From a bacterium (GTDB taxonomy: Bacteria; Patescibacteriota; Gracilibacteria; Absconditabacterales; Absconditicoccaceae): a DNA stretch of 64,000 nt. A program made the translations under genes and the position numbers. The first letter of the stretch is position 1. Each line of letters starts with the position of its first letter. Shown one piece after another: positions 12,420 to 33,805 of the stretch. The stretch spans positions 1 to 64,000 of the forward strand of contig JAHDFY010000006.1 in assembly GCA_020627925.1 (NCBI GenBank), in the 5' to 3' direction. The notes under the pieces were generated by a model, which saw only the letters and a list, made by a program, of their open reading frames with translations, was not told where the DNA came from and did not search any database.

Positions 12420-13487
12420 CTAAATAATTTCTATGGTGTTTATTCAAAGAAATTGCGCATAAGAATGTGCTGCTTTTTCCATATGTGAGGAGGATAGCGC
12501 TATGTTCTGGTCAAGATGATTGATTTGTATGCGTATTTTATCTTTGAGCAGCGTGCGTTTTCGTGTTCCTGCTATGTTTCCATCAACAACCACAAGTGGC
12601 CAAAAAGTTCCATTTTTTGCGTATTGTGTTTGGTGAATTGCCAATGAGTTCCACAATTTGTCTTTGTATCCAAGAAAAAATTCATCATATGCTCACAAAA
12701 AAAATATTTCTCAAGACTGATGTCACGTTTTTTCTCCCCATGTAGGTGGCGTCGCTATGTATGTTTTCCCTTCATATTCTTGTTGTATAAGCATCTTTCA
12801 TGCTCAAGCAATTCACTGGCGGCAATCTGTTTTTCCAAGTTTTGTCCATCTTGCCATATCATCAACAGTTGCTGGTCCATGAGCACGAAAAAACATTGTT
12901 GCTAATTTTATCAATGCTTCCTCTCTTGTGGGTTGAAGAGGTTTATTGACCCATTCGTTGAGCAGTACAAATGTATCTTCGTTGCCTTTGCGAGGACCAA
13001 AACAGATAAGTTTTTTTGTTGCTGCATAGTTGAGTAGGTGGTATATCCGTTGTTTTTTGAGAGCTATTCATTTGTCTTCCCAATAATGAGCTATTTGTTT
13101 ACGTGTCATTTGTTTGCCACCTCTGAGCATTTCATCCAAAAGATCCAATGCTGTAGTTGCTTGTTTATCGGAGATTCACAGATATTCTCTACGTCATGCA
13201 AAGCTACCCAACATTTTTGATGCACACAGGTCCATCATCCAATGCACATTCTGAGGCAACAAAAAATGAATAGTACCACGCATGGGTCGTGTACGAATTA
13301 TTTTTCATTGAGCAATTGTTTCGGTGATGGTTTGGTATGATTGACCTGAACGAATTCCTATTGCTCGTGTTGCCCAATGGTAATCTTGTGCTTGCATACA
13401 TCCAAAATGCTGTACGACGTCGACAGCTCACGTCAATAAAGAGCTAGACAATCATTGCTGTGATAAACGTTGAGAGATAAGAGTCAT
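12420..13487 (-). CDS. Winged-helix DNA-binding protein, YcaQ/AlkX-like (HTH_42)
   Basis: 355 aa. N-terminal LGCMQAQD-like box (FGCMQAQDYHWATRAIGIRSG), then RTRPMRGTIHFLLPQN, FFRAHGPATVDDMARWTKL and GAYDEFFLGYKD, closing with PLVVVDGNIAGTRKR. This order is that of PF06224 proteins. Family members include AlkX/YcaQ, which unhook DNA interstrand crosslinks by glycosylase action, and AlkZ. The QAQD and other catalytic motifs of AlkZ/AlkX look kept (QAQD at about residue 34-37). About twelve in-frame TGA codons; invisible under the standard code except for a C-terminal piece. Confidence 0.88.
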
Positions 13488-13582
13488 AAGAAAGCAGTCA
13501 GGCTAAATATTTTTATCTTGTTCTTTTGGTGGCAGTCAGTAGTATTGCAATAGAAAATGTTTATTTTGTTCTTCTTACATTA

Positions 13583-13957
13583 ATGGCTACAAAAAAAATA
13601 TGGACCTATTGTTTTCATGTGGCAAGATTGCTTGCTGCAGTGATTCTTCTACAAACACTCTATTTCAAATTTTGAGCGCTACCAGAGTCTGTGGAAATCT
13701 TCACTATGTTGTGAGTAGAACCGTGGGGGAGGATCGGTAGCGGTCTTGTTGAGTTGCTCGCAGGATTACTTCTTTTGTGGCCAGCAACAGCATGGTACGG
13801 AGCTATTATTGCAGTGGTTGTCATGCTAGGAGCCATTGTTGCACATGTCGCTATTTTGTGAATAAATTCTTTGTTCTTCATGGCAATAATAACATTATTT
13901 GCTGCATTTACCACCATAATCCTCATACAAAAAAAACTACACGTAGTAAAAAAGTAA
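13583..13957 (+). CDS. DoxX-like membrane protein
   Basis: 124 aa with four hydrophobic segments. Helix 1 reads ARLLAAVILLQTLYFKFGALPES, then FTMLGVEPWGRIGSGLVELLAGLLLLWP, the typical DoxX order (xxFGxxP...G..E...LLL). DoxX-like proteins are poorly defined; some link to redox or sulfur metabolism. Three in-frame TGA codons. Confidence 0.8.
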
Positions 13958-13960
13958 GAA

Positions 13961-13986
13961 AAAACAGGCTATAAGCCTGTTTTTTG
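13961..13986. terminator. Bidirectional terminator
   Basis: ACAGGC-TATAA-GCCTGT flanked by A-run and T-run, between the DoxX-like gene and the converging DKNYY-type gene. Confidence 0.8.
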
Positions 13987-14005
13987 CTAATGATTTTTTC
14001 TTCTC

Positions 14006-15415
14006 TTATTGTGTTTGTTTTTTTCCTCTAGATCGTGTATTGTTTTCGTCTCCTGCATCTGCATAACGAGCATAGACATGAAATGTTGCTGGGTTTGCTC
14101 ACACAAGAATCTCATCATAATAGTAAACATGTTGTGAATCTTTGCTATAGCCCTCACCCAAGTATTGGTATGTCTTTGGGTCAATAAAAGGGAAATCTTT
14201 TTTATCAACAGAGACTGAATAAAGTTTTTGCCTACATCATTCTTTAAAAGCGCTTGTTTCTTGATCACAAGTATAGTATGTTTCACCATTGTTGTACGTA
14301 GCAAAAGTTGTTCCATAGTTACGAAATGAAACCCCTGTTTCTCCCAAAATTTGTACTGCTTCACCGCTATGTGGATAAAACGTCAAACTCGTTGGTTCTA
14401 AGTGAGTGCCAAATAGCTCAAACGAACCAGCTAGTTGTCATAAACTTTCCCAATCGCTGCTTGGTGAAAACTCATTTTTTTTGGTCCATCATTCGACATT
14501 AAAACCTGCCCAACATTTTTTTTCATCACAAATAACTCCTATGTTGCTGCCTTTCGTATTATGTCGATTTCACCAGTCAATACTGTGATTTTTGTAATGT
14601 GAATAGGTATCATTGAGATATTGCTTTCGTGATGCATCTTTCATAGTGGCTTTTTGCGCATAATTTTGCCAAAAGACATCCCTTCCATAGTTGTTTTGTG
14701 AGCTTCTGAGTAAATGTGTTGGCGTTTCATGCTCTTCAAAAAGCTGTGTTCCATTGAGAAAATAAGGTTCTTGTTGGAAATCAAAAATAATATAATCAAT
14801 AATATCCGCTCCAAAAATTGTTTTACGAACTAATGCAGCCGATTCAGCATCACCATCATAAGGACTGTGAGAAGCAACAAGGTACAAATTTCCTATCGAG
14901 GTATTAACTGGATAATTTACAGTATTCCCCCCATGAAAATAGACAACTTGATTGTTGTGTAATTCATGCTGATGAAGCTCCTGCATGATCGTTGGTTGCA
15001 CTTTGAGCAAAAAAATCGTCGAAGAAGCATGATGACCAAAGAGCCAAACAGACAGCATGAGCAAAAGATACAACAAGAACGCCTTCACGATTGCTCCAAA
15101 ATGATGACGTTTGGATCGTTTTTTGTGTGATGCAACATACATGATACCAATTCTTGTACAAAGATATACCGCAACAAAAAGCAACAAAAGAGGAAACATT
15201 CATTCTGGTAGAATATGACCAATAAACGGCATCGAATGCGAATGATTAAAGAAAATATAATTCCATGTTCGCATCTCTATATGAAAAAAGACAAGAAGAA
15301 TATACCCAAACATGACCAAATGAAAAAACATGACAAGTAGTCATAATATTTTTTTGTTTTGAGTATACAAAAAGACACCAGGACTCAAAAACACAGCAAA
15401 AAAGCGAGAAAACAT
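14006..15415 (-). CDS. Membrane protein with extracellular DKNYY-like C-terminus, 469 aa
   Basis: Four hydrophobic segments fill about residues 20-125. A long soluble part follows, with four Cys residues (near 290, 303, 378 and 387). The C-terminal stretch (SVDKKDFPFIDPKTYQYLGEGYSKDSQHVYYYDE) resembles DKNYY-family repeats, where displayed residues precede VYYY. The start at 15415 (MFSRFFAVFL) is the first ATG in the frame once TGA is read as Gly. The soluble part is likely on the outer face. Function unknown. Confidence 0.7.
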
Positions 15416-15561
15416 AGACAAATAATTCTTAAGACAAATAAAAAAACACAGAACACTGCGTTTGTAATCATTTTGCCAGAGAAATCTACAGAGAGATATG
15501 ATAAGAAAAAAAATAAAAGAACATATTACAGAAATACTTTATAGAAATTAATGACAAATAG

Positions 15562-15600
15562 AAAAGCACCTTCAAGAATGACCTGAGGGTGCTTTTTTTA
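15562..15600. terminator. Strong bidirectional terminator
   Basis: A 13-position stem (AAAAGCACCTTCA with TGAGGGTGCTTTT, one mismatch) and T-run. It lies just beyond the LRR gene stop and upstream of the DKNYY-type gene. Confidence 0.8.
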
Positions 15601-15608
15601 TGCAATAC

Positions 15609-16898
15609 CTATTCCTCTTTTTTGGGCATAAGTAAAAGATATGATGCTTCATCGACGCGATCCTTGTTCTTCTTGAAGTAATAGGGGTCAAATGAAAATT
15701 TATCGATGATAGGAATCAGATTTTTTGGAAAAAAAATTGGTTGTTGGCGAAAAATACCTAGTTTCCTTTTGGGTTCTGGTAATATGATTTTAGATGAAAA
15801 AGAGAAAAGCCCAAAGTTTTCCAATCATAAAAAGTCCTCCGGTATAGTACCATGATAAACGCCATAGTCGTGATTAATTTCTTTGAGATTTGTGAGAAAA
15901 ATAATTGTTTTGTCAAAATCAAACGTTTCCATTCTTTTCAAATTGATTTCTTCTAACGATGAAAAATTATTTCCCAGTCATTTCAGGTCCAGTATTCTCG
16001 TGTGATTTTCTGGTAATGATTTATTGCTTAGTGCTAATTTTTTTAGCTGGGGAAGGTGAATAGAAGTGATGTTTTCCAAAGAGTGATTTTGTATACAAAG
16101 TTCTTGAATAGTTTCCCAACCTTTCCATTGTTTGGGGAGCGTAGAAAAAAAATAATTTTCTAAACGTACAGTAGATAAACGAGGCAAGGTACTCAGTATC
16201 CCAAGGTCGTCTGCGGTTAATGTTCCTGGGCGTCCTGCTTTGTGTTCTTTGCTCCCTTTTTTGGTGGTTAATCAGACTTCTTTGTAAGTACCTATTGATA
16301 AGTCTATTTTTTGTAGCGAATGTAATTGTCAAAAGCTATCGGGTAAACTCTCTACATTAGCAACTCATAAACCAAGGTCTTGGAGGCTCCCCATTTCGCC
16401 AAACCATGACGGGAGTGATTGCCCACTATAGTTTTTGATCGAAAGTGTTTGTAATCCTTCCAGGTGCAATAAAAAATCAGGAATTTCTTCTACAACAAGA
16501 TTTGTTTCAAAGCTTTTTAGCTTTTGAGCATGTTTCAGTGATTGAGGAATTTTTGCAACGAATCTGGTATAAGTTAGTCTGTCATTGACGCAAAAATGGG
16601 TTAAATTGCTACAATAAGCTAGTTCATCAAAAGAAGGAAATGTAGAACCAAAGTACGATGTAATAGTTATCGTGTCGATTGATTCCCAAAATTCTTTTTT
16701 GTCTTTGTATTTTTTTGCAAAAAAAATTCGTTGTTCGATCGAAACTCATTCGCTCAAAAATTCTTTGGTTATTTCTTCTTCGCCCTCATGAATAAACGTT
16801 GATTTATGTTTCAAAACATTCAGTAAATCATCTTTACAAAATGACGACGGATTATTCTCAAAGTGGCTTTCCTTGCTATACTCATTTATTTCAACCAT
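15609..16898 (-). CDS. Leucine-rich-repeat protein, 429 aa
   Basis: Repeats run over about residues 90-380 with the LRR spacing of L-x-x-L-x-I/L and N/C positions, e.g. LEGLQTLSIKNYSGQSLPSWF, LHSLQKIDLS and LPQLKKLALSNKSLPEN. No signal peptide or membrane anchor is visible, so it may be cytosolic or secreted by another route. LRR proteins bind other proteins. Six or so in-frame TGA codons. It stands alone between terminators; an AT-rich divergent promoter region separates it from the UbiA gene. Confidence 0.85.
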
Positions 16899-17061
16899 CA
16901 ATAACACTGTTATTGCTAAACTATATTTATTATAAACAAAAGAAACAAAATAACAAAAAATGACTAAATAGATTTTCGCAAGACAATCACGATTGCTTTT
17001 GCTTGATAAAACAAGTGTAGTGAGTACATCTAAGATAATTTATTCTTCGCTATACAAACGC

Positions 17062-17952
17062 ATGCTGAGTATTTCACGTCCACGTTTTTGGATGTACACA
17101 ATTGGTCCCTATTTGCTCGGAACGGTTGCAGGATTGACCTCGGTTTTGGACAATCCACTTATTTTTTCCTGGATGGTGCTGCCATCTTACTTGCAATTGA
17201 TTTGGTGACTGTGACTGCTGTATTTTACGTTTCCTGCAAATTTTTTGATCTATGGTGTGAATGATATTCGAGATTACGAAACAGATAAACACAACCCCAA
17301 AAAACAACATTATGAAACGTTGGTGACACCAAAAAAACACAATGATCTGACTCGCGTAATTGTTCGAACGACAATTCCATTTTTGCTCGTTTTTTTGTGA
17401 GCAGTCGTGTATCAAGCTTCTTTGTTGCAAAACATGACGTATGCGGTTTCTCTTATGGGAGCGCTCGCTTTATTTGTCTTTTTGTGAATATTTTATAGTG
17501 CCAAACCGATAAGAGCAAAAGCAATTCCGTTTGTGGATGGGATTTTTAACTTTTTGTATGTAGTTCCTGGGATTATCTCATTTTTGTTGGTGAGAATGTC
17601 CTGAGTAGAAATTGATGGGTGAGTACTGCTTGCGGCCTTATTTTGGGTCATGGCAATGCATGCATATTCTGCGGTACCCGACATTCAAGCCGATAACGCA
17701 GCTTGAATTCCAACCGTAGCGACATTACTAACAAAAGATCTGACTTTACTCTACTGTCTGTTGCTCTATAGTGGCGCAGCATTCTTGACCTTTGACTATC
17801 TGCAATATGTGGGCGTTGCCATCGGAGCTATATATGGACTGATGATGATTGCTTCTATGTTTGTGCGCGATATCTTTGCTCTCTATCGCTGGTTTCCTCT
17901 AATCAATACGCTTTTGTGATTTGCTATTTTTATCTTTCTTGCATTCTTCTAA
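17062..17952 (+). CDS. UbiA-family prenyltransferase (lycopene elongase-like)
   Basis: 296 aa, about eight membrane helices. Motif 1 N67-DIRDYETD (NDxxDxxxD) binds the prenyl diphosphate through Mg2+, and VPDIQAD near residue 210 is the second Asp motif. It begins SRPRFWMYTIGPYLLG, typical of the UbiA subgroup next to carotenoid genes. The ATG at 17062 is preferred; a TTG at 16993 would add 23 residues. The next gene, a CrtI-like desaturase, begins on the base after the stop, so the pair is translationally linked and probably makes or modifies a C50-type or prenylated carotenoid. That product is inference. Confidence 0.88.
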
Positions 17953-19449
17953 ATGACAAAAAATATACTTATTATCTGATGATGATTTGGTGGTCTTGCG
18001 TCTGCTATTTTGATGGCAAAAGATGGTCATAAGGTGACACTAATCGAAAAAAACGACCACGTAGGAGGAAGAGCAAGTTTGCTCAAAAAAGATGGTTTTG
18101 AACGAGATATGTGACCAAGTCGATATCTTATGCCAGACGTTTTTCAAAAATTCTTTGAATCGATAGGCGAAAACGTACAAGATCACCTTACTCTGACAAA
18201 ATTATCTCCTCAGTATAGAATTTATTTTGAAGAAGATACCGAACAAAAAGAACCTCACTACATCGAAATTACCGGTGACATAGCTAAGGACATGAAAACA
18301 TTAGAAGCCATTGAACCAGGAGTTAGTGATGCGTTTATGGATTATCTCAAAAAATCAGAGCTGCAGTACGATGTAGGTATGCAGTATGTTTACAAGAACT
18401 ATGATTCTATTTTTGATTTTTTTACTTTTGAGATCCTACAACAGTGACTCAAACTCAAAATTTTTTCTACCTTTTCTACTTATGTCAAAAAGTTTTTTGC
18501 AACAAGTAAAATGCACAAAATCGTGCAATACCCATTAGTTTTTTTGGGTACAGCGCCATATGATGCACCTGCTTTGTACAATATCATGAGTCATGTTGAT
18601 TTTAATCTATGATTGTTTTATCCGCAAGGAGGGATTTATGAAATTGTGAGAGTACTCAAAAAAATAGGAAAAAAACATGGAGTAACCTATCTAACCAATA
18701 CAGAAGCACAACAACTAAACATCGATCCCCAAACAAAAAAAATTACCACAGTCCAAACGTCACAGGGGTCTTTTACTCCCGATCTTGTCATCTGTAATGC
18801 AGATATGGCCTGGGCGGAGACGACGCTTCTCGCACCAGAATATCAAACCTATCCTGCAACATACTGGCACAAAAAAACCTTTGCTCCGAGCGCGTTTCTT
18901 GTTTATTTGTGAGTAAACAAAAAGCTGCCCATTCTTCACCATACCTTGATTTTTTCTGAAGATCGAAAGAAGAATTTTGGCGCCATTTTTGATACAAAAG
19001 AATTACCAGAAAATCCATCGCTCTATATATGCACACCTTCAAAAACTGATCCTACTGTAGCGCCCGAGGGGAGGGAAAATCTGTTTGTTCTCGTACCGAT
19101 TCCCAATGGTATAACCGTTGATAAAGAAACCGAGGATCGCTATGAAAAAATGATTTTTGACTACATTGAACGTACGTGCCACATTTCTTTTCAAGAAAAT
19201 ATCGTGTCTAAGCATCGTTTTCACGTTGCGGATTTTCAAAGCAGATACAACGCACGAAATGGCACTGCACTTGGTCTCGCTCACAAACTGAGCCAAACAG
19301 CACTCCGAAGACCCAACAACATCAGCAAAAAAGTAAAAAATCTATTTTATGTAGGACATAACACAAACCCTGGTATCGGTATGCCAATGGTGATGGTAAG
19401 CGCAATGCTTGCTCACCAAAGAGTCACTAATTACCTAAAAAAACACTGA
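17953..19449 (+). CDS. crtI: Phytoene desaturase / carotenoid oxidoreductase (CrtI family)
   Basis: 498 aa. The N-terminal dinucleotide-binding loop IIGGGFGGL uses three consecutive TGA codons (17977-17985) for its first three Gly. KNDHVGGRASLLKKDGFERDMGPS and the C-terminal HNTNPGIGMPMVMVSAMLA are CrtI hallmarks. The enzyme binds FAD and removes hydrogens from phytoene-like polyenes. It follows the UbiA stop with no gap. No phytoene synthase is in the window, so substrate supply is unknown. Confidence 0.92.
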
Positions 19450-21565: not shown

Positions 21566-23302
21566 ATGAATTCAGAAAAATTAAAAAAATCACATGAAAA
21601 AGTATATAAAGAGTTTTTTGTAAAAAATTCATTAGTTTTTTCTCTTCCATTTGTTTTTAATTGGACGTCTGGTGGAGACTATTTTGAATCAAGCTCTATG
21701 AAACAAAAGGCCCCATTTCGTATGTATATTTGAATAAATTATCATGGAAAAGAAAAAGTAAATTTAGGAAAATTGATAAGTTATGATTTTGATTTGTCTC
21801 AGTTTAAATCATCAAAAATTAAGCAGTGAATTAAACGACATCAAAAAATAACTAATTTTTTTTATGAGCATGTAAAAGGTTTAGATAAAAATATCACAAT
21901 ATCAGTTTTGTCTGAGCTTGAAAGCCTTATATGACTCGATTTTGAAAGAATTTTAAGTTTGTTAGTAGCCACAGTTAAATCTAGATTTGAACAAGGTTCA
22001 TTTGATAAAAAAATTCTAAAAAATCAAAATGATAAAATACAAAGTTTGTGAGGAAGCTTAGTTGAAAAAATAATAGAGGACTCAAAAAAAATATCTTTTG
22101 AATTAAATAACAAACCATGTTCTTTAATAGAAATCACATCAATAGTAAACAGTAATTATCCGCTATTAACAATAAATACCGACAAAACAATAACAGTAAG
22201 GCAGCAATTTGAAAAAACGATTAGGGCTTCTGAAATATATGATGACATAAAAGAGGTTCCTTTTGCTTCGGTTGATTATATGCTAGTATATTCTTGATCA
22301 CCCCAAATAGATTGCGAAAAAAATAACTGAACAGAATATCTTATAAAGAAAGAAAAAACAGATAAGCTTTTTAAAGCTTTAGAGAAAAAAATAAAAATAA
22401 AAAAACAAGATTATGATTACGATAGAGATACATACATAAAAAAAGCTGAAAATTTTTCGGAAATAGTAAATAATAACGCAATATGTGCAGTAATTGAATT
22501 CTTTAGATTTCCTAATGATGAGGAAAATATCGCAAAAAACATAAGCATTTGTTGAAAATCTAGATTTGTTATGTACATTGCTTCAAATTTTTGAAGAAAA
22601 TTTACAACGGCAACAAATGTTTTTATTAGAAAATATTTTCAAGAATATGGAAATTTGTGAATAATTGGTCATACAAGAAATTGTGTTTGATGATGTTTTC
22701 TAGTTGTCGTTGAACTAAACAGATCAAGAAGTAACTTGAATGAGCGTCTTGAAAAAGTAAAAGAATTGTTCCCCTCAGCCTGCTGCCTATTCAGATCACG
22801 AGAGGATGAGTATGATGAGCGTGGCTTGGTGATAGAGCATGATATAGAAAATGGAATAATTTCTGATATGTTGGATCCTAATTTGCATATTTATTCTCGT
22901 CCGGATGGCTCGTATATTACTGGTTCATTTCATGGAATACTAGAAAATCCTGAGGTAGATGTTGCATTTGATATTGGGGATGGGAAAATCTACGTCAATG
23001 GTGAGAAAACAACGTCCAAAGAAATTCTCTCACAAACAGCCATCGTCGAGCTTATGGCATATATGATAGAAAATAAGAAACGAACAATCATGAATACGGA
23101 CTTGCCTAGATCAAGTTTTACCAGAAATAAAAACACCCTCAACGCCAAAATCATCAACCCACTCAAAAAACTCATCCGACAAAAATCGTGAAAAGAGCTG
23201 TATCTTTCTAGTAGCGGTTCTCTCACACAATTTGAAATAAGCTTGAGCCCAAGTGACGTATCTATTGGTATCATGAAAAGAGTAAGACCTCCAAAATACT
23301 AA
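21566..23302 (+). CDS. 578-aa protein, divergent GHMP-kinase-like body with winged-helix-like C-terminus
   Basis: The gene is preceded by one of the window's few clear Shine-Dalgarno sequences (GGAGG touching the ATG). The N-terminus SLPFVFNWTSGGDYF resembles the sugar-binding opening of heptose/galactokinase-type GHMP kinases. Around 105-130 lies a helix where the ATP loop would be, but the GLGSS core is missing. Around 370-390 the CVGGCFLVVVEL stretch resembles the GAGGGGF C-motif. Residues 480-578 look like a winged helix. It carries about fifteen in-frame TGA codons, including a TGA TGA pair. The kinase link is weak inference; if true, activity is probably lost and it may act as a sugar sensor. 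Confidence 0.6.
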
Positions 23303-23387
23303 AAAATAAAACTCATTACTGTTATTTGATGGGAATTATGTTTTTTTCATCTCTCTCTTTTTTTATTCTCAGTTAACAGTTGTCCTT

Positions 23388-24173
23388 ATGAAAAAACTAC
23401 ACATTACAATTTTTTACTCTCTTATCATTATTTTTTTTGTCTCGTATTTTTTTTATTATAAGAAACCTATCGATTATTCTTTATTCCATCATGTTTTTTC
23501 TTCTTGAGGTAAATGTGTGGCAGGTGATTTTATTATTCAGACAACGTCTTGAGCCATATCAAAAGAAAGTTTTCTTGGTACAGTAGATGAGAAAAGAGAA
23601 TCTGATTGGATAATTACTTCTTATTCATTAGATTCGTTTGCAATTGATACCTCTGTGTTACAAGTTTTTTGTGAAAATGATGGAACATATGTAGCCTGAT
23701 CTTGGTCCGATAATCTTTATCAAAACGGCTGATTTGCTTATCATAATAGATTTTTATTGAAACATTTTTTTACTCTTTTGTGAGAAAAAAAACGAGAAAA
23801 TGTTGTAGCTATAATGAAAAAATATAGTTGAGAAAATTATTTGTTACCATTATATATTCCTCTCAATATATTCTCTTTTTCAATAGCAGATGAATGAATT
23901 CATGGTATAGGTTTTGATTCTCATTGAATTGCCATCGTTTATTATCGTTTTTTTGAAAAAGATAATGAGTTAGTATTCAAATATACTCCATTGATGTTTC
24001 TGGGTGATAAGTCATTAGATTATGAAACTGAGCAATGGGACGATTGTTATGTTGATCCTTGATATGAACAAAAAGAAAAAAAATGTTACACGTTTTTTGA
24101 AAGCGAACGAGAAAAGTATCTACAAGAAAAAGTGTCATTTTTTGATCAGTACAACGATATTATTAAGAAATAA
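23388..24173 (+). CDS. Membrane-anchored hypothetical protein, 261 aa
   Basis: A short basic start and one hydrophobic helix (about 5-25, TIFYSLIIIFFVSYFFYYK) form an uncleaved anchor. The rest is soluble and rich in aromatic residues and Asp, with five Cys that could form disulfides outside the cell. About ten in-frame TGA codons fragment it under the standard code. Family not recognised. Confidence 0.7.
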
Positions 24174-24187
24174 ATTATTCAAATACT

Positions 24188-24220
24188 AAAAAATAGCGAC
24201 ATGTCTGTCGCTATTTTTTT
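24188..24220 (+). terminator. Rho-independent terminator
   Basis: AAATAGCGAC-ATGTCT-GTCGCTATTTTTTT follows the 261-aa gene by 15 bases. Confidence 0.85.
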
Positions 24221-24329: not shown

Positions 24330-24674
24330 ATGATAATGCGAGTTGATTTAGAGGAATTTCGTACATTAGATCCGGAGAATAAGTTGAAGACAGTAAGAGC
24401 CGCAGCTGATTCTATGAAGGAGACACAGTCAATGGCCGCCAATTATGCGACCTATTTATCGGCAAATAGAAGGTTTGACGATAATATGCTGTTTATTATG
24501 TACGAGTCAATGTATGCTTTTTATGCAAAAGCAGAGTGAGCATATGCAACACAAGTTGCCCAAAAAGCAGAAAAAGTGCAGGAGCATATCAAGCATATGC
24601 AAGCAATTGATGAAGCAGAACATCAGCAAGCAGACGAAGAACTCATGGCTGAACTTGAAGGTTTGGAGGAGTAA
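24330..24674 (+). CDS. Small coiled-coil protein, 114 aa
   Basis: A soluble, helical, acidic protein. Residues 68-112 (AYATQVAQKAEKVQEHIKHM..) have the heptad look of a coiled coil. One TGA (residue 70) joins the halves. ATGs at 24330 and 24336 are both possible starts. It is the first gene of a cluster with the two large orphan proteins downstream (53 bases to the next start) and may be their partner. Confidence 0.65.
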
Positions 24675-24727
24675 CGTCAACAATATTCATCATGTAATTT
24701 TTTTATTATTTTAGTGTAGATATACCT

Positions 24728-27355
24728 ATGGGAGTTGAGTCATGAAACTATAGAGAGTCAGCCGATTATTCCAATTTGGACGCAAAGGAGAGCAAAAAAG
24801 AAAAAGAGATCAGAGAGCTCATTGAGGATGCGGATTCACCAATTGCAAAACAAGAAGCAGCAAACAAAATGAATGATCATTTTAAGTTTGTCTCTATTGC
24901 TAATGACTTGAAAAATACGTTTCCGACACAGGCAACGATCACTCCACAAGATATCAAAAATTTCTTGGATACAAAACTACCAACACCAGAACAGCAAGAA
25001 GATTTTTGGCAAAATTTTGCTTTATGGCTCAAGACAGAAGAGGTTATTTTTGTAGGAACAGGAAGTCAATCCTATGATTGTCGTAATATTCCTATCGGAA
25101 ACCAACCAATGGCCGGAACACAAGCAGCAGGAGAGTTTATGTTGAGAGTGTTGGCTGGTGATACATCGTGAGTAGATGCAACGAATACGACAGAAATTTG
25201 GTTGCCACAGACTATTGCCAACTCCGCCGAGAATGTCTACAAAATGCAAGCGGTCAATGCAGGAGCAAAATTTAATGCCTCTATCGATGCGATCAATGAT
25301 ACCGACCGTGCGATCAAAAGAGCAACGGGAGAGCAAAACAGGGAGTTGCAAAACAAAAAATTAGAACAAGAGTCTGCAATGCAAAGAGAACTTGATGCCT
25401 TGTCTCACGCGATTGTAGGGATGTTGAAGTCAGACCCTAGAGGACAAAACAAGGAAACAAGACAAATACTCAAGGCATACAAAGATGCAAAAAAATCATA
25501 TGGCGTGTACCTTGAAGACCACGAGGTGGATACCTGATGGAATCAAATGAAGCAATACGACGATCGTATCAAAGAAACTAGCGCCAAGATATATACCATT
25601 CAAGTGCTCGCCCGAGAGGATCATATGGAAAATATGTATCTAGGGAGCTATGATCAAGCGATGCAAAATATTACTCAGACATGGGTACACAATGATTTTG
25701 TCCCGATGAAAGACCCGGTCAGGAGACAAGCAATGGAGCGTGCGATGGGGAAATGAATTCCTAAATTTATTGCACAAGTTCGTGACAAAGAGTGAATTGA
25801 CGGAATTCTGACCTTGCTGGATACTGTACAAGCAAAAATGGACCAAAACAATCGGCAGTCAACCAATCTGCAATGATTCTACAAGATATTCGCCACGGTG
25901 TTGCAACAATCGGTAGGAGCGGAGATGATCAATGGGGCGACTCCCCAGCAAGATATTCAGTTTTTTAAGCTGATCACTGGAAGAACTCTTGAGGATACAC
26001 CACAAGAAGAAGGAAAGCAATCAATTGCCAGGTGGCTCTATCACAATAATCCAATTACAACCTGAGCAAAAGCCGCTGCTGGATTGTTCTCATATAACTC
26101 GGCGAGGATTGATGACAATGTCAAAAATTTTGATTTGGCGGAAGTTGTTGGTTTCAAAATGATGGCTGATTCGTGACTCACTGAGTCTATCGCACAACAA
26201 AACAGAGAAGTGATGTGATTTCCTAATCAGCAAGAATTTGATGCGCAAATGAAGAAATTTGACGCATTCACCGTCAAGACTCCTGATTGACAGTCGTTGC
26301 AGTATGACGTTCGTCAGGCTCTCGGGTTAGATCCATCCATGAAGGTAGAAGAAATGACACTCAGTCAACTAAAAATATTCAATACGCTCCAAGAAACCGC
26401 TAATGATAGAGCGCTTGCTAATCTTTGGCCCAATGGAGAACAAGCAAATTTGGAAAAATTCTTCAAAGTCTTTGGAGAAGCCGCACAAAAAGTCGAAGAA
26501 GAAACAAATGCTTCTCTTGTTGTTGCTTTGGGAATTGCCAATGAAGGCAATTTATCAGCAAAACAAAAGGATGTATTCACCCTTATCAAGGACTACTATG
26601 GACAAGGCGGTCTCTTTGACATCTCTGATAGAAACTCAATGAAAGCCAAGCAATGGGCAAAAAAAATTGCTGTGATAGGCGCTACAGCTGCAGTGGCTGC
26701 AGCGACAGCATGATCATGACTACCATTTTTGTGAGCAGCAATAGTAACCGGAGCTTCATGAGCTGCTATTGATGTTGCCATCAATCAGAGAGGATTTGAT
26801 ACTCATTTTGAGTGAGTGAAGTTCTTTGGGTTTAATGCATTGCAATCGGTTATTCTAGGATGATTTGGTAAAATCCCTGCTATCAAAAATATTGGATTTG
26901 GTGTCGATGATGCAGCAGAAGCAAGCATCAAAGAAGTAGGATTGACCACATGGCTCAAGACAGTCGGGATCAATAGGGTAAAAGCAAAAGCAAACAAAAC
27001 ACTACAAGATACACTCAAAAAACCTATCAAGAACACCTTGGGTGAAGCAAGAGAAGCTCTTGTGTTTGATAAAGAGGTCGACATCAATCAAGTGATGGAC
27101 AACCTTTTCAATAAACTATGATCTAATGCAGGAATGGAACTTCTGACACAATTAGCTATTGATACTGATGATATGTCGGTGCTTGATTCGGTCGCTGACA
27201 AGCTGGAAACTGAGTCAAAGAACATTATTCCACAATATCAACAAGCCTTAGAAAAAGCACAATCACCACAAGAAAAACAAGCAATACAAACAATGTTAGA
27301 GCATCGACAGTTTGCTGGAGGAATCAAAGCACAATTGATCGAAGCAAGATGATAA
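24728..27355 (+). CDS. Large orphan protein with glycine/alanine-rich membrane-like segment, 875 aa
   Basis: I do not recognise any domain. Residues 1-640 are mostly helical, with a coiled-coil-prone stretch near 185-260. Around 650-720 lies a long Gly/Ala-rich hydrophobic region (VIGATAAVAAATAGSGLPFL, then AAIVTGASGAAIDVAI), like a membrane-inserting hairpin or glycine zipper. A helical tail follows. No signal peptide. Many in-frame TGA codons join at least six fragments; the frame ends Gly-TAA (TGA at 27350, TAA at 27353). It is cotranscribed-looking with the 741-aa protein (26-base gap). Confidence 0.75.
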
Positions 27356-27381
27356 AATACTGTTTTATATAGAATACTCTC

Positions 27382-29607
27382 ATGAGTAAACTAGAATCGT
27401 TGCATCATGTAGCAACCAATGAAAGTGATGAAACCAAATTGCTCAAAGAGCTTGATGAAAGGCATGAAAGAAGGATTGCATATCAAGAACTCATGACAAG
27501 TGGGGAGTTGACTTCATTGCAAGACACGATCAAAAAAGAGCTTATTGCGTGAACAAAAAAGTCGCTAGCAAATGCGATCAATAATGCTGCTATTCGTGCA
27601 AAAATGCTTTCCTTGACTTGGGAAGAAGCAAAGCAAAATACAGAAGCAAATGCAGAGGCCCAAGCGGCACTTGCATTGGTTTTTCTTTTGGCAAAATTGA
27701 ATGCAGAGGACGCAAATTATGATGGTTCTTTTGCTGATGCACATCTGTTATTGAGTAAAGCACAATCGTGGATTACCAATCAAAACTTTTTGAATGAGAT
27801 TGGTCAGGTAGCTGATGTTGCGGCATGAGGAGACGCTCCTACAACGAGAGGAGAAGGAAGACCAAAGCCAAAGAATACCCCAAACATTCCTACTCCAAAA
27901 AATGATGACAAAGAAAGAAGAAAAAACAACCTAGAAAAACAATTAAAAACATCCTTACAAGGAGTAACTTTCTTTGCGTCCAAAAATGATACCTCTATCT
28001 TGTATCTCAAAGATCACCAAACAGGAAAGAAACAACAAATGAAATATGATGCTGAAACTAATGTATACGAATACACAATGGGTGATGATTTTTACTTTAC
28101 TTTTGCCAAAAGCGGTGATGACGTATCACTTGTTGGATACTGCACAAAAGAGGGATGTTCACCACTGGATGATATAAAAGATCTTGCGGGACTCAAAAAA
28201 ATATACCAGGAACATCAAAAAAAACATCCTCCAACTCCCAACAAGCCCAAAAACAAACCAACACCATTATCGTACGAAAAAGAACTTGTTTTATGAAAAA
28301 ATCTTATTGAAATCAATAAAGGAACTGCAGTTCCTGACTGGTCAAAATACTGCAATGATCCCAATCAAACAACCGTTGCAATTGTCTCAACACACTGGTG
28401 TAGGGATTGTGGCCATTTTAAAAAAGAGATCCTGGCAAAAAAGCGACCAGCGAACACCAAATTTCTTTTTATTGATATGTCTTCGGACAATGGAAAGAAA
28501 CTAGATTATGCTACTGATATAAAGGCTGGAGCATATAAGAGTGGTTATGTAAAACGAAGACAAAACCATGGATTGAGCTGATGGCCCCACGTAATGACCT
28601 GGAAAGGAAACCATTATACATGATCGCTATGATATGATTATAATGCTCCAGTCAAAAATGAGCTGCGCACTCAAGTCAGTCCGTGATTTTCTATAAAAGA
28701 CAAAATGAAAAATATGAAGATGATCATTGATGACAACAATAGTTCAGATAACACAACGATCAAAAGCAATTTTGCGAATTATTTACAACGCTTTGAAGCA
28801 AGAAATCCTGGTCATACGATAAATAATTATGGTAAGGTAGTTGATAAAACAGCACCAAAAGATCCAGAAGCATTTGATGAAAGAACCGATATAAAATTAC
28901 CTTATGGACTTAAGTATTTGGATATAGAACAATGAGACCTAAAAGGATCATGGGGGTTAGAGATTCCATCAAATTCACAAGCTATCTTTCTTTCTAATTC
29001 ACAAAAACAATATACCGATGCAAACGGTAACTTAGACTTCACAAAAATTAAAACAAACATTGAAAAATCGACAGGAAAAAAGGTAATTCTACAAATGGCC
29101 GGTGGGATGACCTCCATAGTCAAAAAAAATGGCCTCAATGTCAAAGTTCCTAATGCAGGAACAAGAGTCAATGGAAAAGAAGTCGGAGATCCAAACAATA
29201 ACACTGGTTGGCTTTCATCGCTTGCTATTGATGCAAATGGAAAAATTAATTTAGTTCCTTCGAGTAGTAATTATCAAAATGGCTTTAAGACCATGGGAAT
29301 TGTTAAAAATGGAAAAGTTGCTAAAATGATAGCAAAAAGGGTAAAAGAGCGAAGGGTCTTAGCAAAAACAAAATCAGGAAAATTGCTGATGATTGATAGG
29401 CCACGAGGTAAAAAAGCCAATGAATTTGCCCAAGAATTAGTTGCAAAAGACCGAAATGGTGAAAAAATCGAAGATGCTATGATTATCGATTCTCAATGAA
29501 CTCCTTGGGAATATGTGCAAGTAGGATGATGAATCACCGTTCCATGAAATCCTTCCATCAAACAACACGCACAATGATTTAGTAATGTTATCGTCTTTGT
29601 ACAATAA
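27382..29607 (+). CDS. Large multidomain protein with thioredoxin-fold CRDC domain, 741 aa
   Basis: Residues 1-150 are helical and share the style of the preceding gene. A Pro/Lys-rich linker (about 150-175) and a small beta domain (175-275) follow. The next domain reads TTVAIVSTHWCRDCGHFKKEIL with WCRDC as a redox site, then LFIDMSSDNGKK and WPHVMTW, where the Pro fits the thioredoxin cis-Pro loop. The last 220 residues (LQMAGGMTSIVKKNG.., DAMIIDSQGTPWEYVQVGGG) resemble phosphodiester-glycosidase (NAGPA) domains; this second link is tentative. No signal peptide is seen. A terminator follows. Confidence 0.75.
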
Positions 29608-29615
29608 CAAACCAC

Positions 29616-29650
29616 AATTCTCACTCTTGTAGTGGGAATTTTTTTTATTT
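29616..29650 (+). terminator. Rho-independent terminator
   Basis: AATTCTCACT (29616-29625) with AGTGGGAATT (29631-29640) and eight or more T residues close the large-orphan operon. Confidence 0.8.
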
Positions 29651-29724: not shown

Positions 29725-31554
29725 ATGTGTGGAATATTTGCTTATCAATGAAACAAACAAGCGTTACCTATCTTACAACGTGGTTTAGAGAGATTGGAAT
29801 ATCGTGGTTATGACTCAGCCTGAGTCTGTGTCATGGATGCTCAAGGCTCAACCAAACTTATCAAATCAGTAGGAAAAGTAAGTGAACTTGAAAGTAAAAT
29901 TAGTAAACAAACAAAAGGCAAAGAAGAAGAACTGAACGCATTCACGCGTGGGATTGCTCATACACGTTGGGCTACTCATGGTGTCGCGTCAGAAGTGAAT
30001 ACCCATCCTCACCATGATGCAGGAAATCATTTCTACGTTATACACAATGGTATTATAGAGAACCATGCAAAACTCAAAAAACAACTAAGAGAAAAATGAT
30101 ATACATTTTATTCACAAACAGATTCCGAGGTTGTACCGGCTCTTTTGGCAGAGCATTGGACAGGGGATTTACTAGAAACAGTAGAAAAAGTACTGCCATT
30201 GCTGCATGGTGCATATGCACTGGTCATTATGACAACGCATGCACCAAACGAGATTGTTGCGCTCAAACGATGAAGCCCATTGATTTTGTGAACGGCGCCT
30301 GATGGTTTTTATTGTAGTTCTGATATGCAAGCGCTTGCCGGATACGCAACGCAAACAGTGACCTTGAGTGATGGTGAACTTGTCTATATCAAAAACAACG
30401 ATTATATTATCAAAGCAGAATGAAAAATAATCAAAAAAGACTTAGAAAAATTAGATATAAAAGCAATGGATGAATCAAGAGGAGAATATGAAACATTCAT
30501 GCGTAAAGAAATTGATGAGCAACCAGCCATTATCAGGAGAGCATTTATGGGAAGAGTGAATTTTGACGAAAAAGCAATTCATGCAGACGCAACCAAATAT
30601 CTCAAAGATAAAGAAATCCAAAAAGTCGTATTTGTGGGGTGTGGTACCTCATATAATGCTGGGCAAATGGGGGCTCTTTGGATGCAAAATATTGCAGGAA
30701 TTGATGCATCAGCCAAGATTGCAAGCGAATACATGCATCAAAGAATTCCCACCGACCCAAAAACATTGCATGTGTTTCTTTCACAATCATGAGAAACAGC
30801 AGACAGTATTGAAGTACTCAAACATATCAAAGATAAAGGAGGTCTAACGTTTGGGATTGTCAATGTCGTAGGTTCAACTATTGCGACGATGACTGATTGT
30901 GGTTTTTTCTTGAGAGCAGGGTATGAAATCGGTGTTGCTTCAACAAAAGCCTTTACTGCTCAAATGATCAATATTTTGATGCTCACACTTTTTTTGTGAA
31001 AAAAATGATCACTCAGTTATGACCGTTATACCAATATCCTCCATGCTATGAAAACAGTGCCTAGCCTGATGGAGCAAATCATTGCACAAGAAGATGCTAT
31101 TGCCAACGTAGCCAAAGAGATGAGCAGATTCAATAATATGTTTTTCTTGGGAAGAAAGTACGAGTACGTTGTTGCAGATGAAGGATCTCTCAAGCTCAAA
31201 GAACTAAGCTATATTCACTCAGAAAGCTATCCTGCTGGGGAACTAAAACATGGGCCTCTGGCACTTATTGAAGAATCTTTTCCTTGTGTCTTAATCGCTC
31301 CGCATGATGGATTATTTGAACAAAATATGTCTTCAATGGCTGAAATACAATCAAGAAAGTGAAAAGTTCTTGTTGTTTCTAACAGGGAAACAGAATGAGC
31401 AGACCGAATGATTACAATCCCCTCTGCGCATCCTGCTGTGATGCCTTTTTTGACAACGATGGTGGTGCAATTACTTTCATATCATGTTGCCAAAGAATTA
31501 GGAAGAGATATAGACAAGCCAAGAAACCTTGCAAAAAGTGTTACTGTGAAATAA
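29725..31554 (+). CDS. glmS: Glutamine-fructose-6-phosphate aminotransferase (isomerizing)
   Basis: 609 aa, the usual length. It makes glucosamine-6-phosphate from fructose-6-phosphate and glutamine, the first step to UDP-GlcNAc for the cell wall. Cys2 (MCGIFAYQG) is the glutaminase nucleophile; [21 protein letters not shown] and HNGIIENH mark the GATase domain. Two SIS domains follow ([10 protein letters not shown] near 305, [26 protein letters not shown] near 475), ending [10 protein letters not shown]. Many in-frame TGA codons at conserved Gly, e.g. residue 9. No glmS ribozyme structure is apparent in the short upstream region. Confidence 0.96.
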
Positions 31555-32188: not shown

Positions 32189-33805
32189 CTACTCCTTCTC
32201 TTTGAGCCAGGTGAGCATTCATTCAACAAAGGTTCTTTGAGAGGTTGCTTTGGGGATTTTGTATTGCCCGCCAAGTCTGTTGGTTGCTTTGGCATAGGCA
32301 GTGAATGTTCCGGGAGCTACAAAATGCACAATTGGCTCTCCAAGCCAAAATTCTCCTACACTATTTTGCGTGGAACGCTTTGTTTTGTAGTCATCATTCA
32401 GCTCTTGTAGATACAGATCTATTTGTTGGCGAATGTTGGTCTGCTTTGCGGTGTTGTCGCAAATAGCATGAGGAACCTCCACAATCCATTCCAAACGTTG
32501 TATCCCGTCAGAATCTTTTCCTGTATTTCAAGTAACACTAAACAATGTAATTGCTGTATCCAGGCGAGCTATCGCGCTCATGACTTGGTGTTCAGAAACT
32601 TCCTCACCTGTCATATTGATCGACGCAGGCCTTCACAAAAGAGTGTATCTCAATGGTTGCACACAAGTAATTTGAATGATATCCATCGGGCAGCGGAGCA
32701 ATCAAGGAACGGAAACAATAAGACCTACTTTTTTGTTGAGCCATTGATCAGGGTGTTGGCATAGATCACTATAATCAACAATTTTGTCGTAATGTTTCTT
32801 AGGAATGTTCCACTCACTATCATAGTACTCTACAGGAATAAATTCCGCAAAAAATCACTGTGTAGGGCGATATTGCGTTTGTTGTTGATGTATCCCTCCA
32901 TTGTGATCTGTCCAGGCTTGAAAACCAAAAATACCCTCACTGGCATTATACACACCGACCAAATTTTCCTCCAGCGAGAGTCACATCGCAAGAAATGAAG
33001 ACAAAAATGGTTGTATCGAAACACCTCACCAAACAACAACCTCCAATGATGGTAAGACCTCCTTGATTGAAGTGCTGCCTTGCTGACCATGAAGTGCGAT
33101 AATTCTTTTCAACAACATCTCTTCCCATTTTGTTACTCCATAGAGAAGAGAAATATTTTTTTGAGGAAGTGTGTTTTCGTATAACACACTTTTTTGGCTC
33201 CATGGTTGTAGAAGCGTTTGTTTAGGGTATGCGTAGAGGAGTGAAGCAAGCAAAAAATTAGCTGATTGGGTAAGCAATGCCGATACATCACCGCCAATAT
33301 AATTATTTTTTTTGTCTACTTTTTGAATAGTTCATCCCAAAGAGTGATGCTTTCCTGCAAAAATTGTTGGTTTTTGACGTTTGCGGTGGATCATCGATTG
33401 CAAATACAAACCGTTGCGAATATTGGTTTTTTTGGTATCGCGAGTAAAAGGAATTCGCTTCCCTTTGCTAGTTGTTCACGATGATTTACTAAATGCTGTA
33501 ATTTTTCCTGGCCACAAAATATTCTTTTTTTTCATGGATTGAGGAATCCATTTTTTTTGATAGTCACTGCCTGTAATGATTGGAAGGTCACGTTTCCAGT
33601 GTTGTTGAAGTTTTTTTGCATTCCACTTATTCATTCCTAGAGAATGACCTATCGCAGTACGAGAAAATTGTTGATACAAAAAACGCTGATAGTCCTTTTG
33701 GTAGGACGCATAATGTTTGTCAAAATGCTCAAAACGAGGATAAGTTATTTTATCCAAGTAAAACGAAAAAAGATGAGCAAATAATTTTTTGATAGAGGTG
33801 ATCAT
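32189..33805 (-). CDS. GH3-family acyl-adenylating enzyme
   Basis: 538 aa. The ATP loop SSGTTSKGKRIP (about 108-119, its Gly from TGA) and VGVYNASEGIFGFQ (motif with YxxSEG) are the adenylate-forming signatures of the GH3 family. The N-terminus has the YQKDYQRFLYQQF helix common to bacterial GH3 proteins, and the C-terminal domain ends GPGTFTAYAKA-like (APGTFTAYAKATNRLGGQYKIPK). GH3 enzymes join amino acids to carboxylic acids in plants; bacterial roles are mostly unknown. About ten in-frame TGA codons. No neighbour reveals the substrate. Confidence 0.85.

What the first reader, a model, noticed from the sequence alone, without database searches (positions are those of the whole stretch)
24330..29607. 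Operon of one small and two giant orphan proteins
Three genes (114, 875 and 741 aa) in one transcript, bounded by terminators at 24188-24220 and 29616-29650. The 875-aa protein has a Gly/Ala-rich membrane-like segment; the 741-aa protein joins a helical start, a CRDC thioredoxin-like domain and a tentative glycosidase-like tail. No signal peptides are seen. The set could be a contact-dependent or secreted effector system of an episymbiont, but nothing in the sequence proves that. This is my best candidate for an undescribed system.
Basis: partly seen in the sequence, partly recalled or inferred. Interest (0 to 1): 0.7.

Follow-up and report, generated by a model that had tools for sequence, protein, structure and literature searches.

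The report
Small-adaptor plus giant-protein gene module
Three neighbouring genes in an ultra-small bacterium with a variant genetic code look like a divergent copy of an undescribed pairing, repeated across its class, of a small helical protein with a giant protein that often ends in an enzyme, which may be how these host-dependent bacteria equip or export large cell-contact proteins.

Summary
In detail: three intact table-25 genes (114, 875, 741 aa) lie between two terminators, without signal peptides or any curated-family match. "Orphans" is only partly right. The 875-aa protein shares a conserved DIxGxGxFDxSD plus Gly/Ala-hairpin domain with giant proteins in 34 of 353 class genomes, including a 1946-aa giant elsewhere in this genome; it was not seen in the other classes sampled. 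Many of these giants, like P0002, directly follow a ~100-aa helical gene with an acidic tail. A profile built from four such small genes found relatives in 106 of 353 genomes; of 16 untrained, untruncated hits 13 precede a gene of at least 500 aa and 10 one of at least 1500 aa. So the window carries a divergent instance of a class-wide, apparently undescribed module: small helical partner plus giant, whose C-termini vary (calpain, zinc peptidase, cNMP-binding/zeta-like). P0001 itself does not match the small-gene profile significantly; its membership rests on position, size and acidic tail. The 741-aa gene (weak thioredoxin, unproven glycosidase-like tail) has no relative found. I favour an adaptor-guided envelope or effector module; export is not shown.

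The parts
24188..24220 (+). terminator-like hairpin with T-run ending the upstream gene
   Evidence: read from the sequence: 14-bp perfect stem, 4-base loop, T-run; not listed by the scan
24330..24674 (+). P0001, 114 aa, helical, net charge -11 (last 25 aa -10); position, size and acidic tail of the small-partner family
   Evidence: Not significant against the core small-partner profile (E 3.2; 4.9); tail scores above 99.4% of 526 decoy tails but 21% of shuffles of its own tail reach it
24728..27355 (+). P0002, 875 aa giant
   Evidence: phmmer relatives among class giants
25751..26002 (+). P0002 aa 342-425, second conserved region shared with hairpin proteins of G138, G239, G242
   Evidence: domain E 2e-6, 3e-6, 0.009
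26537..26896 (+). P0002 aa 604-723, DIxGxGxFDxSD motif plus Gly/Ala-rich hydrophobic hairpin domain
   Evidence: found with P0002 alone in G096 (E 3e-4); profile finds 34 of 353 class genomes; alignment
27382..29607 (+). P0003, 741 aa; no relative found in any collection searched
28366..28623 (+). P0003 aa 329-414, thioredoxin-like segment with WCRDC
   Evidence: PF13098 E 0.029, spanning positions 6-93 of 104, below the curated cut-off
28849..29607 (+). P0003 aa 490-741, tail that resembles phosphodiester glycosidases by eye only
   Evidence: no Pfam or profile support; class search hits are chance
29616..29650 (+). terminator closing the unit, before glmS at 29725

Best explanation
The three genes are a divergent copy of a two-part module of this bacterial class. 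A small helical protein (P0001), made first from the same transcript, binds the giant made next (P0002), keeps its hydrophobic hairpin soluble, and hands it to an envelope export or assembly machine through its acidic amphipathic tail. The giant's conserved DIxGxGxFDxSD/Gly-Ala hairpin then enters a membrane, of the cell itself or of a contacted cell. Catalytic work is done by variable domains, usually at a giant's C-terminus (calpain, zinc peptidase), here probably by the separate partner P0003 (thioredoxin-like plus unassigned tail). Shown: the ORFs, the recurring small-plus-giant pairing, the conserved hairpin domain, the variable C-termini, a second copy in this genome. Inferred: binding, export, target, P0003's activity, and P0001's descent from the small family.
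For: Hairpin domain: first found with P0002 alone, then 34 of 353 class genomes, nearly all in large ORFs; none of the other-class genomes in a phylum sample of 314; phmmer with P0002 alone matches G274 2e-12, G138 2e-11, G239 1e-10. Small partner: a profile of four finds 106 of 353 genomes; of 16 untrained, untruncated hits 13 precede an ORF >=500 aa and 10 one >=1500 aa, at -14 to +115 bp; 17 of 26 family members against 4 of 85 other small genes are followed closely by an ORF >=1000 aa (Fisher p 3e-10; loci were chosen for these features). The improved profile hits every same-class genome in a phylum sample (29 including own). Variable C-termini: Peptidase_C2, Peptidase_Mx1, cNMP_binding with sub-threshold Zeta_toxin. 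Second copy here: small gene and 1946-aa giant 51 bp apart, small gene E 0.0019, above all decoys. A longer paralogue lies beside a PilT-like ATPase (PF00437, E 1e-50) in this genome.
Against: P0001 does not match the family significantly. Some hairpin giants have no such small gene upstream. No secretion signal, immunity gene or export machine is linked to this locus. The small-gene profile also meets unrelated helical proteins weakly (ribosome recycling factor, E 9e-4). No relative from the same genus is held, so constraint on these three genes could not be measured.
Confidence: 0.42

Rival explanations
1. The giants are structural or housekeeping envelope proteins of the cell itself (surface fibres, membrane anchors, wall remodelling), and the small partner is an assembly chaperone; nothing is delivered to another cell.
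For: Giant membrane proteins are reported for the related predator Vampirococcus and ascribed to its surface (PMC8080830); the own 1946-aa giant has no toxin-like domain; a hairpin giant in G027 lies next to an NlpC/P60 protein; no immunity genes.
Against: C-terminal domains differ strongly between loci and include peptidases, as in polymorphic effectors; patchy presence of the hairpin domain (about 10% of class genomes).
Confidence: 0.33
2. P0001 is unrelated to the small-partner family; only P0002's hairpin domain is shared, and the three genes are a lineage-specific set with no common mechanism.
For: P0001 scores are not significant; P0003 has no relatives; P0002's best relatives (G138, G239, G242) sit in operons of other giants without a small gene.
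Against: Same position, size, charge and helical character as the small genes, and the same layout at the second locus in this genome with a nearly equal gap (51 and 53 bp).
Confidence: 0.17
3. Remnant of a phage or mobile element, or decaying frames.
For: Orphan character; low-GC genes just upstream (0.28-0.30).
Against: Intact long frames with genome-typical composition; no PHROG, phage or viral-contig match.
Confidence: 0.04

Closest known systems
LXG effectors with Lap1/Lap2 targeting factors, type VIIb secretion (PMC9600955)
   Same: about 100-aa helical partner encoded next to a large polymorphic protein with variable C-terminus; C-terminal export motif in the partner; glycine-rich hydrophobic segments in some effectors (PMC10434224, abstract only)
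   Different: no LXG, WXG100, DUF3130 or DUF3958 match (DUF5344 only E 0.052); giants of 900-2500 aa; found in Patescibacteria; EssC not tested
Giant surface proteins of Vampirococcus and other CPR (PMC8080830)
   Same: very large, mostly unassigned proteins in host-dependent relatives
   Different: no small partner or hairpin domain is described in the passages read
Type IV secretion of Patescibacteria (PMC12102498)
   Same: a candidate export route; own genome has a VirB4-like ATPase below the curated cut-off
   Different: no effector or adaptor family was found described in the passages read; no link to this locus

Membership tests
Hairpin-giant domain (defined here) | DIxGxGxFDxSD motif followed by a Gly/Ala-rich hydrophobic hairpin | tested here: met
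   P0002 alone against other giants: E 1e-12 to 1e-5; alignment
Small-partner family (defined here) | significant match of P0001 to the family profile | tested here: not met
   E 3.2 and 4.9
Small-partner family (defined here) | about 100 aa, directly upstream of a giant on the same strand | tested here: met
   114 aa, 53 bp before P0002
Small-partner family (defined here) | acidic amphipathic C-terminal motif | tested here: inconclusive
   above 99.4% of decoys, but 21% of own-tail shuffles reach the score
LXG/Lap type VIIb effector system | LXG domain in the effector and Lap or WXG100-type partner | tested here: not met
   Pfam and NCBIfam scans
LXG/Lap type VIIb effector system | EssC translocase in the genome | not tested
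Type IV secretion effector | VirB4-type ATPase in the genome | tested here: inconclusive
   117.8 bits, E 8.7e-35, below the cut-off of 643
Polymorphic toxin with immunity gene | immunity gene directly downstream | tested here: not met
   a terminator and then glmS follow
Thioredoxin-like (P0003) | match over the family cut-off | tested here: not met
   PF13098 15.1 bits against 27, though CxxC and domain span fit
NAGPA phosphodiester glycosidase (P0003) | match to PF09992 | tested here: not met
   three other proteins of this genome match, P0003 does not at E 10

The most novel reading that the evidence does not exclude
A class-wide, undescribed export system in which dedicated small helical adaptors, related to a protein encoded beside the PilT-like pilus ATPase, load giant polymorphic proteins onto pilus or type IV secretion machinery for delivery into the host cells these bacteria live on.
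Probability: 0.15. Interest if true: 0.9.

Novelty: new variant of a known kind. Interest (0 to 1): 0.6.

Why it matters
How Gracilibacteria and related host-dependent bacteria attack or feed on other cells is almost unknown, and their giant proteins are usually listed only as hypothetical. A recurring small-partner gene gives a handle for finding and grouping these giants across the class, and makes the question of whether they are exported through a partner protein directly testable.

Tried and rejected
Pfam, NCBIfam, PHROGs, PADLOC and PDB searches of the three proteins: nothing significant. Viral contigs, phages and GTDB contigs: none. glmS neighbourhood in 15 relatives: gene order not conserved; only G007 has a small-plus-giant pair there. 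P0003 tail in 288 class genomes: hits inspected and judged chance. NAGPA by hhalign: negative. AlphaFold from single sequences: pLDDT 37 and 32, not used for fold search. Profile searches of viral contigs with the hairpin or small-gene alignments were not possible. The extra hits in family f1 are mostly a longer paralogue beside pilT followed by small membrane genes, not giant partners.

Full report
What is there. Read with table 25, the window holds three same-strand genes of 114, 875 and 741 aa, closed by a terminator at 29616-29650 and preceded by a 14-bp hairpin terminator at 24188-24220. Composition and TGA use resemble housekeeping neighbours, so the frames are real and resident in the code-25 lineage.

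Orphan status. No curated family matches any of the three, nor any PDB sequence convincingly. P0003 found no relative in 99 related genomes or in GTDB or viral contigs, and its tail none in 288 class genomes. No other species of the genus appeared among the related genomes searched. P0002 is different: alone, it weakly matched one giant in the same class (G096, E 3e-4). The two together gave a profile that finds 34 of 353 class genomes, mostly in very large ORFs; the alignment shows a sharp motif, DIxGxGxFDxSD, before a Gly/Ala-rich hydrophobic hairpin. With P0002 alone as query, other giants match at E 1e-12 to 1e-5 and some share a second region at aa 342-425. Outside the class the domain was not seen in the phylum sample. 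A second copy lies in this genome in a 1946-aa giant.

The small partner. Many hairpin giants directly follow, often with overlapping start and stop, a small ORF of about 100-140 aa with an acidic tail. Four of these (A4) as a profile found 106 of 353 genomes at E 0.05. I fetched 20 untrained hits: 16 had an untruncated next gene, of which 13 were at least 500 aa and 10 at least 1500 aa. Against other small genes in the same loci the enrichment is 17 of 26 against 4 of 85; the loci were picked because they hold giants or small genes, so the p value is only indicative. A broader profile hits all 29 same-class genomes of a phylum sample, but these hits include two longer paralogue groups, one next to a GreA-like gene and one of about 212-240 aa. 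In family f1, including this genome, a 135-145-aa paralogue sits beside a PilT-like ATPase and small membrane genes. The core small proteins tested have no curated Pfam or NCBIfam model.

The giants. Their ends vary: calpain over cut-off in G096 and G054, Peptidase_Mx1 in G007, cNMP-binding plus sub-threshold zeta-toxin-like in G149. By eye only, others look like kinases or metallopeptidases; Pfam did not confirm these.

The window's case. P0002 belongs to the hairpin group. P0001 has the right place, size and acidic helical character, but no significant profile match and only an inconclusive tail motif. P0003 follows as a separate protein with a weak thioredoxin match; its tail is unassigned.

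How it may work. The pairing of a small helical partner with a large variable protein resembles targeting factors of LXG effectors (PMC9600955), without sharing their defining domains. I therefore favour an adaptor that keeps the giant soluble and guides it to an envelope machine. Whether the giant stays on the cell's own envelope or acts on a host is open; a VirB4-like ATPase and a pilus ATPase locus exist in this genome, and type IV secretion is known in Patescibacteria (PMC12102498), but nothing ties them to this locus.

Limits. Both structure predictions were single-sequence and unusable. The profiles A1, A5 and A7 contain window sequences, so their own matches to the window are not evidence. 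My literature search covered open-access papers only.

Noticed in passing
G000:C5:320758-326961 (locus L111): Second small-plus-giant pair in this genome: small gene ending ADADSLLKKM and a 1946-aa giant with the hairpin domain.
   Followed up: partly
G000:C5, locus L225 around 12590-15633 (minus strand): PilT-like ATPase (PF00437) followed by a 145-aa helical paralogue of the small partners and two small membrane proteins, one with a weak TrbC/VirB2 match; conserved in several genera of the family.
   Followed up: partly
L103, L105, L110, L120 (G138, G242, G017, G191): Recurrent operon of three large unassigned proteins (about 760-970, 1050-1300 and 650-720 aa), the third with the hairpin domain.
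   Followed up: partly
L229, L231, L233, L237: About 125-135-aa paralogue with a conserved SESMNEEERQYW...TPEQ motif in a fixed place after a GreA-like gene.
   Followed up: no
window 21566-24173: Two low-GC genes (0.28-0.30, 39-53% of Gly as TGA) without family matches, likely recent arrivals.
   Followed up: no
window 16993-19449: UbiA prenyltransferase next to an amine-oxidase/phytoene-desaturase-like FAD protein.
   Followed up: no
window 15612-16907 (minus): 432-aa leucine-rich-repeat protein (R13L1/DRL21-type LRRs, E 4e-13).
   Followed up: no
window 32192-33805 (minus): 538-aa GH3-family protein (GH3 N- and C-terminal domains), unexpected in a reduced genome.
   Followed up: no
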